A DNA stretch of 64,000 nucleotides from Amnibacterium sp. CER49 (GCF_029846255.1 NZ_JARVWQ010000002.1:806001-870000), one strand, 5' to 3'; shown: positions 49,839-54,229, numbered from the stretch's first letter. The notes: generated by a model from the sequence alone, not told the origin. Program-made: numbers and translations.

Positions 49839-52349
49839 TCAGCGCGGCAGCCGCACCCGGATCGGCTCGCGCTGCGGTGCGATCAGCACGACCTCGTCGT
49901 CGGCGACGACGGGCGGCAGCGGGGCGCCGCGGCCGAGCAGCGTGCGCACGTCGGCGGCGGCGACGCGGTCCACGAGCACGGGCAGCGTCGCCGCGAGCCG
50001 GGACAGCGCGGACCACTGCGCCTGCCACGCCGCGGGCGTGCCGTACGCGACCGACGGCGCCGGGACGGGCTCCTCCCCCGCCGGGACGGCGGCCCAGCCG
50101 GCCGTCTGCAGCCGCTCGACGCGATCCGCGGCCCGCTCCGACAGCAGCAGGTACCGGCCCGGCTCGAGCGGCGGCGCGGGCACGTGCGGATGGCGCGGCA
50201 GCGGCGAGGCGGGGAGCACGACCTGGGCGCGCTCGCCGCGCCACGATCCGCCGCCCGGCGGCAGCCGCTCGCACCAGGCGGCGCGATCGCCCCCGAGGGC
50301 GAGGTGGTCGTCGAGGCCGAGGCGGAGCAGCAGGCGGTCGTCGAAGAGCCCGACGAGGGGCCGCAGCGGGCTACCCGCCCATCCGCTCGGGCCGCGGAGC
50401 GCGAGCACGGTCGGCGCTGCGGCGGGATCCCGGAGCCGCACGGCGAGCCGGTCGAGCGCCGCCTGCCCGTGGGCGCCGAGCCGGTCGACGAGGTGCTCGA
50501 GGTCGTCGAGCACGAGCGGGACGCGCGTGTCGTGCAGCAGGTCCCAGGCGACCGCGGCGTCGGTGCCCGCCTCGGCGGCGCCGATCGCCGCGCACACCGC
50601 CGCGAGCGCGGTGCTGCGGCCGCTGCCCGCGTCACCCGCGACGAGCAGCCGTGGGCGGCGGGCGACGTCCCAGGCGAGCGGCACCTGCTCCTGCCGGTCC
50701 GGTCGGTCGATGAGGCCGAGCAGCACCACCCCGGGGGCGGGGGCCGGCAGCCGGTCGGGCGGCAGCACCGCCGGCAGCGGCTCGAGCCACGGCCGGCGCG
50801 CCCGTGAGCCGGCGGCGGACGCCGGCACCGCGTCGACGTCGGCCGCCGCCACCCGGGCGACCGCGACGGTCCGGGGACGCTCGCCGGGCACCGCGAGCAC
50901 CGCGGCGCCCACCCGGCTTCGCGGCAGCAGGGCGGCGTCCGGGATCCCCGTCATCGCGCGGCTGTCGGCCTCGTCGTTCACCCGCAGGCAGATGCGCAGC
51001 GCGCAGTTCGCGAGCAGCTCGTCGCGGACGCTGCCGGCGGGCCGCTGCGTGCAGAGCACGAGATGGACGCCGAGCGACCGGCCGCGAGCGGCGAGGTCGA
51101 CGAACAGGCCGGCGAGCGCCGGCCGGGCCTCGAGCAGCGCGCGGAACTCGTCGACGACGATGACGAGCCGCGGCTCGCCGCTGCCGTCGATCCCCGGCAG
51201 CCCGAGGTCGCGCAGCAGCGCCTCGCGACGCACCAGCTCGGCGCGCAGGCTCGCGACGGCCCGCTCGGTGCCCTCGCCGTCGAGGTCGGTGACGACCCCG
51301 GTGACGTGCGGGAGCCCGGCGAGCGGGTCGAAGGTCGCGCCGCCCTTGCAGTCCACGAGCAGCAGCGCGAGCCGTTCGGGCGGGTTGGCCGCCGCGAGGG
51401 CGAGGATCCACCCGCTGAGCAGCGCGCTCTTGCCGCTGCCGGTGGTCCCCGCGACGACCGCGTGCGGGCCGTCGGCCACGAGGTCGATGTCGACGGGCAC
51501 GCCGCCGCCGTCGACGACGAACCGGGCGGGCAGCCCGCCGCCCGTGGGGGGCTCCGCCAGCAGCGCGGCGAGCGGGGGCGCCGGCGTCCCGGGCAGCAGC
51601 CGCTCGAGGGCGGCGAGCGCGGCGGCGGTCACGAGCGCCGGCACGAAGGCGGCGCCTCGCAGGTGCTCGAGCCCGGGGGCGGCGTGGACGACCTCCGCGC
51701 GGGTGGGACCGGAGACGCGCACGACGAGGTCCGCGTCGTTCCCGGCGCCGACCGGTGGCACGGCGACGGAGCCGGTGGACCGGGCGGCGGCGACCGCCAC
51801 CGCGCGGGCGAACGCACCGGCGAGCAATGGCTGCCCTTCGACGGCGACGCGCGTCGTTCCGGGCACGGTGAACGGGACGCCCCGCAGGGTGCGTCCCGCC
51901 GCGAGCAGCGCCTGCTCGCGCTCGGTCGCGGCGCGACCGCCGACGAGCGGCGCCACCGGAGCGTCGGCGCGGCCGAGCACGAGCTCGGCGCCGGGCGCGG
52001 GTCGCCACCGGCCGGTGAGCAGCTCGGCCGGCCCGGGCTGACGCCGTCGCAGCGCGGCCTCCCGCTCGGTGCGGAGGCGCTCGAGGTCGGCCTCGAGCCC
52101 GTCGAGCGCCGCCTCGTGCGCAGCGGTGTCGCGCCGCAGCCGCCGCCGCGCCTGGAACCGTCCGTCGAGCACGGCGCCGACGGCGACGACGGGTGCCAGT
52201 GCGGCGAGCAGCAGCATCGCGGGCGACTGCAGCGCGAGCGCGAGCGCGATGGAGCCGGCGAGCGGCGCGAGCACGCCGAGCAGCGGGAAGCCGGGCGCTT
52301 CGGGCCGCGCGGGACGCGGCGGGAGGTCGAGGCGGTCGGTCACGCCCAC
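49839..52349 (-). CDS. FtsK/SpoIIIE-type ATPase, EccC-like
   Basis: 836 residues from a GTG at 52349 (GTG 52343 also possible). Two hydrophobic helices (~24-62), a linker, and an FtsK/SpoIIIE ATPase with intact Walker A AGTTGSGKSALL (~300) and Walker B LVIVVDEF (~394). A second ATPase-like domain has GDAGSGRSTAL (~570) and LVLDDLEHL, altered from consensus. This two-helix plus tandem-ATPase design is that of EccC, the type VII secretion motor. But no WXG100, EccB/D/E or mycosin gene is present. It is the last gene of an FHA-PP2C-ATPase unit. Confidence 0.85.
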   Translation of the reverse strand: MGVTDRLDLPPRPARPEAPGFPLLGVLAPLAGSIALALALQSPAMLLLAALAPVVAVGAVLDGRFQARRRLRRDTAAHEAALDGLEADLERLRTEREAALRRRQPGPAELLTGRWRPAPGAELVLGRADAPVAPLVGGRAATEREQALLAAGRTLRGVPFTVPGTTRVAVEGQPLLAGAFARAVAVAAARSTGSVAVPPVGAGNDADLVVRVSGPTRAEVVHAAPGLEHLRGAAFVPALVTAAALAALERLLPGTPAPPLAALLAEPPTGGGLPARFVVDGGGVPVDIDLVADGPHAVVAGTTGSGKSALLSGWILALAAANPPERLALLLVDCKGGATFDPLAGLPHVTGVVTDLDGEGTERAVASLRAELVRREALLRDLGLPGIDGSGEPRLVIVVDEFRALLEARPALAGLFVDLAARGRSLGVHLVLCTQRPAGSVRDELLANCALRICLRVNDEADSRAMTGIPDAALLPRSRVGAAVLAVPGERPRTVAVARVAAADVDAVPASAAGSRARRPWLEPLPAVLPPDRLPAPAPGVVLLGLIDRPDRQEQVPLAWDVARRPRLLVAGDAGSGRSTALAAVCAAIGAAEAGTDAAVAWDLLHDTRVPLVLDDLEHLVDRLGAHGQAALDRLAVRLRDPAAAPTVLALRGPSGWAGSPLRPLVGLFDDRLLLRLGLDDHLALGGDRAAWCERLPPGGGSWRGERAQVVLPASPLPRHPHVPAPPLEPGRYLLLSERAADRVERLQTAGWAAVPAGEEPVPAPSVAYGTPAAWQAQWSALSRLAATLPVLVDRVAAADVRTLLGRGAPLPPVVADDEVVLIAPQREPIRVRLPR

Positions 52350-52419
52350 ACGATCGCGGGTGCCGGAGGTCCAGCGCGGGCGGGACGGCGACCTGGGGAC
52401 GGCGAGGCGCCCGGCCGGA

Positions 52420-52438
52420 GCCTGGGGAGGAGCGGTTA
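52420..52438 (-). repeat. Gene-end CTCCTCCCC motif, copy 3 (downstream of PP2C)
   Basis: Minus strand TAACCGCTCCTCCCCAGGC, starting with the TAA stop of the PP2C gene, the same placement as copy 1 relative to apt. Confidence 0.6.
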
Positions 52439-53238: not shown

Positions 53239-53260
53239 CGGGTCTGGACCCGATCGGGTC
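53239..53260 (-). promoter_or_regulatory. Palindrome ahead of the PP2C ribosome binding site
   Basis: GACCCGATCGGGTC (53247-53260) is a perfect 14-bp palindrome; a further CGGGTC lies at 53239-53244. In the message CGGGT can pair with ACCCG just before GGAAGG, so alternative small hairpins adjoin the ribosome binding site of PP2C. Confidence 0.4.
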
Positions 53261-53266
53261 TGTCGC

Positions 53267-54229
53267 TCAACGGTAGGGAAGGATCTCGATGACGTTGCCG
53301 TCGCCGATGTCGATGAGCGTACCGGGTACGACGGGCAAGGACTCACCCGACTCGAGACGCCGCACCCCGATGCCCGGCTGCCGCACGACCGTCCCGTTCG
53401 TCGACTGCAGGTCGGTGAGCACCAGGCCCTCGGCGGTCGGGCGCAGCTCGATGTGGGTCGCCGACACCTCGCGGCTCGGGCTGTCCACACGGACGAGCCG
53501 CGGCAGCATCGGCCCCGTGACGCGCGGGCTGCGCGGCTGCCGGCCGACGTAGACGGGCGCGTCGACCCGCTCCGGCGGGCGGTCGCCGAGCCGGAAGGCG
53601 GCGGCCGCAGCGGTCTCGGGCGTCGGCGCGGTGGGGGGCGGCTCGACGCGGTGGCGGTCGAGGGACGCGGCGCGGCGCCCGAGGTCGGTGAGCACGTTCG
53701 TGTCGAAGGGCGACTGCACGGGCGTCGGCGCCGTCAAACGGCGCGGCGCGGGCGTCACGACGAGCTGGTGCGTCCAGCCGAGCCAGGGGCCGAGCACCAC
53801 GCCGCCCTCGAGCGGGATGTCCTGCGCCCCGGGATGCAGGTCGCCGGGCGAGCGCTGCAGCGGCCCGAGGGCGAAGCGCTCGACGGCCTGCAGCTCGGCG
53901 ACGTACCAGGGCTCGTTGCCGCGCGCGTCCACCCGGCGCATCCGCCCGGCGACGGCGATGTCGGCGCATCCGTCGCCCCGCACGACGAAGGTGGTGGCCG
54001 GGCCGAGGGCGGCGATCGCGAACGAGTGCACGGCGCCGGCGCCCCTCGTGGGCACCGCGGCGACGAGCGCGTCGAGCCCGAGCGTCGGGTCGGCCGCGAT
54101 GCGCCACAGCGTGCTCATCAAGGAGACCGGGCTGTCGGGCCCGAACGCGCCGAGGAACCGCTCGGAGACGAGCAGCCGCCACTCCTGGTCCGGCGCGGTC
54201 TGCTCGGGGAGGTAGAAGGCGCCGGTCAT
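53267..54229 (-). CDS. FHA domain protein of the FHA-PP2C-ATPase unit
   Basis: 320 residues from the ATG at 54229. The C-terminal ~95 residues are a forkhead-associated domain: LVRVDSPSREVSATHIELRP (Arg/Ser/His core), LTDLQSTNGTVVR (Asn-Gly), and a closing IDIGDGNVIEILPYR; it binds phosphothreonine peptides. The N-terminal ~230 residues (LYLPEQTAPDQEWRLLV-like start, FALGPLQRSPGDLHPGAQ) are not recognised and include an alpha/beta region with PTRGAGAVHSFAIAAL. The middle is Pro/Ala rich. First gene of a unit with PP2C and an EccC-like ATPase. Confidence 0.85.
   Translation of the reverse strand: MTGAFYLPEQTAPDQEWRLLVSERFLGAFGPDSPVSLMSTLWRIAADPTLGLDALVAAVPTRGAGAVHSFAIAALGPATTFVVRGDGCADIAVAGRMRRVDARGNEPWYVAELQAVERFALGPLQRSPGDLHPGAQDIPLEGGVVLGPWLGWTHQLVVTPAPRRLTAPTPVQSPFDTNVLTDLGRRAASLDRHRVEPPPTAPTPETAAAAAFRLGDRPPERVDAPVYVGRQPRSPRVTGPMLPRLVRVDSPSREVSATHIELRPTAEGLVLTDLQSTNGTVVRQPGIGVRRLESGESLPVVPGTLIDIGDGNVIEILPYR

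What the first reader, a model, noticed from the sequence alone, without database searches (positions are those of the whole stretch)
49839..54229. FHA - PP2C - EccC-like ATPase operon without type VII substrates or partners
Three same-strand genes encode an FHA-domain protein with a ~230-residue unrecognised N-terminus, a complete PP2C phosphatase, and a two-helix, tandem-ATPase EccC/FtsK-like motor. Known: EccC drives type VII secretion and FHA/PP2C pairs manage phosphothreonine signals. Seen here: no WXG100, EccB/D/E, mycosin or kinase gene lies within the flanks inside the window. Inference: either a stripped-down, phosphorylation-gated secretion or DNA-handling complex, or an orphan motor using substrates encoded elsewhere.
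Basis: partly seen in the sequence, partly recalled or inferred. Interest (0 to 1): 0.6.

Follow-up and report, generated by a model that had tools for sequence, protein, structure and literature searches.

The report
Stripped-down type VII secretion-like motor operon
Three neighbouring genes of an actinobacterium (Microbacteriaceae, near Amnibacterium) are the two ends of a nine-gene, phosphorylation-linked operon whose middle was lost, leaving a membrane motor of the type VII secretion family that this bacterial family keeps even when most partners are gone; what it moves is unproven, but one lone WXG100 protein elsewhere in the genome is the best candidate.

Summary
Observation confirmed. 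On the minus strand: FHA protein (53267-54229), PP2C (52436-53227) and a two-helix EccC-family ATPase (49839-52349, 836 aa). It matches EssC/EccC far better than FtsK. It has the EccC D1 and D2 ATPase domains but lacks D3, the domain that binds secretion signals in characterised EccC proteins. The genome holds no other EccC and no YukD/EccD, but one solitary WXG100 (YxxxE tail, beside groEL) and 18 kinases.

The block is a remnant. In most sampled Microbacteriaceae the same chromosomal place holds nine genes: FHA-1, PP2C, kinase, ~1980-aa Ig/FN3 protein, MoxR, DUF58, transglutaminase, FHA-2, short EccC. The five genes kinase-to-transglutaminase, equal to the Bifidobacterium PFNA core, are present or absent together (36 versus 13 loci outside the genus), lost several times. 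The ATPase is the part that stays; in five streamlined 1.1-1.7 Mb genomes a ~340-aa protein (membrane segment plus D1-like domain) stands at the corresponding place.

Best explanation: a reduced, phospho-regulated type VII-like motor. A possible cargo is the solitary WXG100; co-occurrence supports this only weakly (genus-level p=0.004, not phylogeny-corrected). It is not a member of any published T7SS subtype tested. New variant of a known kind.

The parts
53267..54229 (-). FHA-1: ~215-residue unrecognised N-terminal part plus C-terminal FHA domain (residues ~226-320), 320 aa
   Evidence: Pfam FHA. G229, R230, S256, H259, N278, G279 invariant in the genus. N-terminal part found in full-operon relatives L105, L106 and in the long-EccC operons L114 and L058 (alignment A3); no Pfam or PDB match.
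52436..53227 (-). PP2C-type Ser/Thr phosphatase, 263 aa, TTG start
   Evidence: NCBIfam Stp1-like 198 bits (below its 230 cut-off), PP2C_2. Motifs such as NEDS, DGMGGH, GDSR, SDG, GGRDN are present (sequence). TTG start supported by relatives that begin at the same place.
49839..52349 (-). Short EccC: two N-terminal hydrophobic helices, shortened DUF region, D1, shortened D2, C-terminal tail; no D3; 836 aa
   Evidence: D1 Walker A GTTGSGKS (301-308) and Walker B LVIVVDE (395-401); second P-loop GDAGSGRS (572-579). D1 is the best conserved region within the genus (70% versus 47-55% elsewhere).
54491..54934 (+). Left flank: AsnC/Lrp-type regulator, synteny anchor
   Evidence: Same position in full-operon and reduced loci.
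46695..47795 (-). Right-flank anchor: dxr (with FKBP 48753-49760 and rseP 45242-46639 around it)
   Evidence: dxr detected downstream of the short EccC in many relatives whose stretch reaches that far.

Best explanation
The three genes are what is left of a nine-gene operon (FHA-1, PP2C, Ser/Thr kinase, giant Ig/FN3 envelope protein, MoxR, DUF58, transglutaminase, FHA-2, short EccC). The ancestor of the window's genus lost the kinase-to-FHA-2 stretch (five PFNA-type genes plus FHA-2). The ATPase is a real, shortened EccC-family motor. It most likely forms a membrane-anchored ATPase driven by D1. Its activity or assembly is probably set by threonine phosphorylation, read by FHA-1 and erased by PP2C, with a kinase now supplied from elsewhere in the genome. 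A possible cargo is the solitary WXG100 protein (YxxxE tail) of a response regulator-histidine kinase-WXG100 gene row convergent with groEL. Shown by computation: gene identities, domain loss, the syntenic full operon, all-or-none loss of the five-gene block, absence of another EccC or of YukD. Inferred: function as an export motor, control by phosphorylation, cargo identity. My confidence by step: EccC-family motor 0.95; remnant of the nine-gene operon 0.9; phospho-control 0.6; WXG100 as cargo 0.3.
For: EccC/EssC scores far above FtsK (low-confidence fold search also ranks EccC 4nh0 first). D1 matches EccC D1 (E~1e-82) and the second domain matches D2 (E 6e-28) rather than D3 (E 7e-6). Nine-gene operon at the same chromosomal place, e.g. 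G132 (L105+L042) and G068 (L106+L041). The five-gene block is all-or-none in 49 loci outside the genus, 36 with and 13 without. On the ATPase tree the window's genus nests with full-operon G132 and G068 (support 96), at least 6 state changes overall, at least 4 forced by well-supported branches. Transglutaminase of the operon has no match and its kinase no close match in the window genome (best 35% identity). The solitary WXG100 is the genome's only one, with tail YAQIE and YxxxE in all six sequences read. All 91 genomes at least 90% complete classed as having the short or micro ATPase also have a strong WXG100 match, against 19 of 26 classed as lacking it: Fisher p=1e-5 by genome, 0.004 by genus (from tables).
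Against: The WXG100 is not linked to the operon, and T7SS-linked WXG100s are counted in the co-occurrence table too; the test is not corrected for phylogeny and the two classes were set by hand from match strength and frame length. G066 and G039 (drafts) show the groEL-side WXG100 but no EccC was detected. D3, which binds the EsxB signal peptide in M. tuberculosis and T. curvata (PMC6954902), is absent, so recognition would have to be different. No conduit protein (EccB/D/E, Ig/FN3) is encoded beside it. No experiment.
Confidence: 0.45

Rival explanations
1. The short EccC is a working membrane ATPase, but not for WXG100: it moves another, unrecognised envelope protein, or assembles or remodels the envelope, as first suggested by the Ig/FN3-MoxR-DUF58-transglutaminase module beside it.
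For: The full operon links it with envelope genes and with no WXG100. D3 is missing. It is kept where the module is lost.
Against: It outlives the envelope module in many lineages, so it does not depend on it. Its paralogue (long EccC, 1485-1503 aa) sits in a very similar operon with WXG100 genes directly downstream (L114+L059, L058).
Confidence: 0.35
2. Decaying relic: the genus lost the system and the three genes are on their way out.
For: Six of nine genes are gone; D3 and part of the DUF region are missing; no cargo beside it.
Against: Reading frames, Walker motifs, FHA and PP2C signature residues are intact in the genus genomes where the genes are complete, across 56% ATPase identity. Two genus genomes (G151, G152) have the gene split by contig ends only. 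Reduced loci recur in several lineages and still keep the ATPase.
Confidence: 0.12
3. FtsK/SpoIIIE-type DNA translocase or conjugation motor.
For: Pfam places it in FtsK_SpoIIIE; FtsK and TcpA structures are among the fold matches, in a low-confidence model.
Against: EssC/EccC profiles score 144-210 bits against 65 for FtsK. No FtsK gamma domain in the Pfam list. The genome has its own FtsK at C2:774527.
Confidence: 0.04

Closest known systems
T7SSd of Actinomycetota (Garrett et al. 2024, PMC11217815)
   Same: EccC/EssC ATPase together with a Ser/Thr kinase and a very large Ig-like envelope protein (TsdI, 1654 aa); the full operon of the relatives has the same kinds of parts.
   Different: T7SSd ATPase has N-terminal FHA domains and four NTPase domains and a linked WXG100. 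The short EccC has no N-terminal FHA and no D3, and no WXG100 is linked. Relatives add MoxR, DUF58, transglutaminase, PP2C and two separate FHA proteins; the window lacks kinase and Ig/FN3 protein.
T7SSf / T7SSe (PMC11217815)
   Same: PPM phosphatase plus an FHA protein with an unusual N-terminal domain; T7SSf also has no linked kinase.
   Different: Bacillota only; their FHA protein has DUF6382, not found in the 16 FHA-1 N-terminal parts scanned; they have linked WXG100 and a ubiquitin-like protein.
PFNA operon of Bifidobacterium (PMC8430577)
   Same: pkb2-fn3-MoxR ATPase-duf58-tgm, then prpC and fha in some species: the same five-gene core that is gained or lost as a block here, plus PP2C and FHA.
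   Different: No FtsK/EccC gene is mentioned for PFNA in the paper (term search). The window keeps exactly the non-core part (FHA, PP2C) plus the ATPase.
Long EssC-like operon of Microbacteriaceae (L114+L059, L058, L099)
   Same: PP2C, FHA with the same N-terminal part (L114, L058), kinase, and in L059 Ig/FN3, MoxR, DUF58, transglutaminase beside an EccC-family ATPase.
   Different: 1485-1503 aa ATPase with D1-D3 and WXG100 genes directly beside it; absent from the window genome.

Membership tests
Type VII secretion system (any subtype) | EccC/EssC-family ATPase with N-terminal membrane helices | tested here: met
Type VII secretion system (any subtype) | ATPase with DUF plus three ATPase domains (D1-D3) | tested here: not met
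   DUF shortened, D1 and D2 present, no D3
Type VII secretion system (any subtype) | WXG100 gene in the gene cluster | tested here: not met
   None in the 64 kb window by gene-profile census; the only genomic copy is on contig C1
Type VII secretion system (any subtype) | Export of a WXG100 protein | not testable with these tools
   Needs experiment; only a YxxxE tail and co-occurrence are shown
T7SSa (ESX) | YukD/EccD ubiquitin-like component | tested here: not met
   No PF08817 match in the genome
T7SSa (ESX) | EccB, EccE, mycosin | not tested
   Not searched by family; none recognised beside the block
T7SSd | Linked kinase (TsdD) and giant Ig-like protein (TsdI) | tested here: not met
   Absent beside the window block; similar parts present in syntenic relatives. 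Orthology with TsdD/TsdI not tested
[quoted passage not shown]
T7SSe/f FHA component (TseJ/TsfJ) | N-terminal DUF6382 | tested here: not met
   No match up to E=0.1 in 16 relatives
PFNA operon | pkb2, fn3, aaa-atp, duf58, tgm in order | tested here: not met
   Absent in the window's genus at this place; present in order in full-operon relatives
FtsK DNA translocase | FtsK-type motor with gamma domain | tested here: not met

The most novel reading that the evidence does not exclude
A minimal type VII-like export machine: a membrane-anchored EccC reduced to D1+D2 (or, in streamlined genomes, to a single D1-like domain of ~340 aa) that works without EccB/D/E, without the signal-binding D3 domain and without gene linkage, exporting a solitary YxxxE-tailed WXG100 protein under FHA/PP2C control.
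Probability: 0.25. Interest if true: 0.8.

Novelty: new variant of a known kind. Interest (0 to 1): 0.56.

Why it matters
Type VII motors are described as multi-domain ATPases whose last domain reads the cargo signal. Here a whole bacterial family keeps a version without that domain, loses its neighbours again and again as one block, and in tiny genomes apparently keeps only one ATPase domain. If it still exports protein, it defines the smallest working type VII motor and moves the question of signal recognition to D1. It also ties the Bifidobacterium PFNA genes to an EccC-type ATPase, a link not mentioned in the PFNA paper read here.

Tried and rejected
FtsK-type DNA motor: rejected on scores. 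A complete ESX in the genome: not found. Relocation of the missing middle genes elsewhere in the genome: three other DUF58/MoxR loci exist but are not close relatives (DUF58 and transglutaminase at most ~30% identity over parts), the operon's transglutaminase gives no match in 7 genus genomes and its kinase only distant ones, apart from a 49% match in G152 beside a long EccC; note that the empty transglutaminase search has no positive control in that call. AlphaFold of the FHA protein (pLDDT 38) and of the ATPase (pLDDT 49) with three sequences each was too poor; the FHA model was not searched and the ATPase fold search is only a consistency check. Profile search of the FHA-1 N-terminal part found nothing. 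Looking for the operon in 20 loci of other families of the order: not found with these profiles. 'EccC-free' genomes as disproof of the WXG100 link: five of them turned out to hold a ~340-aa EccC-like protein at the corresponding place. No dN/dS test was done.

Full report
OBSERVATION. The window is C2:806001-870000 of a 3.36 Mb genome in two contigs; its nearest named relative found is Amnibacterium kyonggiense, so it is Microbacteriaceae. Families: FHA, PP2C_2/Stp1-like, FtsK_SpoIIIE. The ATPase scores 210 bits for EssC, 181 for EccCa, 144 for EccCb, 65 for FtsK and its best solved relative is T. curvata EccC.

ANATOMY OF THE ATPASE. Two hydrophobic helices lie at about residues 20-64. Split against five long EccC proteins of the same bacterial family, the middle part is EccC D1 (E about 1e-82 to 1e-48), the second ATPase domain is nearest to D2 (E 6e-28) and not to D3 (E 7e-6), and residues 60-270 correspond to the DUF region but are shorter. 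There is no D3. D1 keeps GTTGSGKS and LVIVVDE, and is the best conserved part within the genus (70% against 47-55%). In characterised EccC proteins it is D3 that binds the EsxB signal peptide (PMC6954902).

THE GENOME. One EccC-like gene and one FtsK, no YukD/EccD, one WXG100, 18 kinases. Two genus mates (G016, G097) carry a separate long-EccC locus with an EccD-like protein, and G152 an EssC-like locus with a kinase and small WXG100-like genes; the window genome has neither.

THE FULL OPERON. In 150 Microbacteriaceae genomes, 141 have a strong match, in two size classes, about 850-1150 and about 1450-1750 residues of open frame. The short class, in the genomes read, lies between an AsnC/aldehyde dehydrogenase pair and the dxr region, as in the window. 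In most of them the place holds nine genes in one direction: FHA-1, PP2C, Ser/Thr kinase, a ~1980-aa protein with bacterial Ig and fn3 domains, MoxR, DUF58, transglutaminase, zinc-ribbon FHA-2, short EccC. FHA-1 of the clearest cases (L105, L106) is the orthologue of the window's FHA protein, including the unrecognised N-terminal part.

REDUCTION. By profile census outside the window's genus, 36 loci have all of kinase, Ig/FN3, MoxR, DUF58 and transglutaminase and 13 have none; I saw no partial case, where the stretch read was long enough. Reduced forms: FHA-1-PP2C-EccC (window genus), PP2C-FHA-EccC (G045, G141), FHA-1-PP2C-FHA-2-EccC (G063, G129), PP2C-EccC (six genomes), EccC alone (G136, G073, G100). 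On a tree of 50 short ATPases the label needs six changes, at least four forced by well-supported branches; the window's genus nests with full-operon G132 and G068 (support 96), so here the middle was lost. The lost five genes are, in order, the core of the Bifidobacterium PFNA operon (PMC8430577). In 20 loci of other families of the order the operon was not detected with these profiles.

MICRO FORMS. In five streamlined genomes (G092, G013, G095, G081, G144; 1.1-1.7 Mb) that first seemed EccC-free, a 338-363-residue open frame with a hydrophobic N-terminus and one D1-like ATPase domain stands beside AsnC, with aldehyde dehydrogenase in three and dxr in two of the stretches read. Its matches are to the D1 of short and long EccC rather than FtsK. 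That it descends from the short EccC is inferred from place and similarity; I did not build a tree for it.

CARGO CANDIDATE. The only WXG100 of the genome lies 44 bases behind a response regulator-histidine kinase pair and converges with groEL; the same placing is seen in G016 and G039, and next to groEL in G013, G095 and G066. All six sequences end in YxxxE, the motif required for mycobacterial T7SS substrates (PMC6954902). All 91 genomes at least 90% complete that I classed as having the short or micro ATPase have a strong WXG100 match, against 19 of 26 without; Fisher p=1e-5 by genome, 0.004 by genus. This is suggestive only: classes were set by hand from tables, WXG100 genes of other loci count too, genomes whose ATPase class could not be told were left out, and relatedness is not corrected. 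G066 and G039 have the WXG100 with no detected EccC.

MECHANISM. Shown: identity, domain loss, operon history. Inferred: a membrane-anchored ATPase driven by D1; FHA-1 reads a phosphothreonine that the PP2C removes, with a kinase from elsewhere; cargo perhaps the solitary WXG100, recognised without D3. Against this stand the missing linkage, the missing D3 and the absence of any conduit protein beside it.

COMPARISON. By composition the full operon resembles T7SSd (kinase plus giant Ig-like protein) and, in the reduced form, T7SSf (PPM phosphatase plus FHA protein, no linked kinase) of PMC11217815, but every subtype there is said to have an ATPase with four NTPase domains and a WXG100 component, and the DUF6382 test on FHA-1 failed. 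So it works perhaps like a T7SS motor but is not filed as a member of a named subtype. A literature search for T7SS in Microbacteriaceae brought up no paper on this locus among those listed.

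Noticed in passing
L002:11110-13894 (own genome C1), L100, L198: Solitary WXG100 gene behind a response regulator-histidine kinase pair, convergent with groEL. PMC3935865 states that actinobacterial WXG100 genes in its set were bicistronic without exception; this one is not.
   Followed up: partly
L219:9148-10161, L220:8828-9874, L221:9480-10508, L222:9485-10507, L223:39-1127: About 340-aa EccC-like proteins with a hydrophobic N-terminus and a single D1-like ATPase domain at the corresponding place in 1.1-1.7 Mb genomes.
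   Followed up: partly
   Followed up: partly
L114, L059, L058, L099: Paralogous EssC-like operons of Microbacteriaceae with PP2C, FHA, kinase (and in L059 the PFNA-type genes) plus WXG100 genes: a T7SSd-like system that may deserve its own description.
   Followed up: partly
G051, G121 (genus g51): Complete genomes with a long EccC (about 1460-1472 aa frame) but no WXG100 match by Pfam.
   Followed up: no
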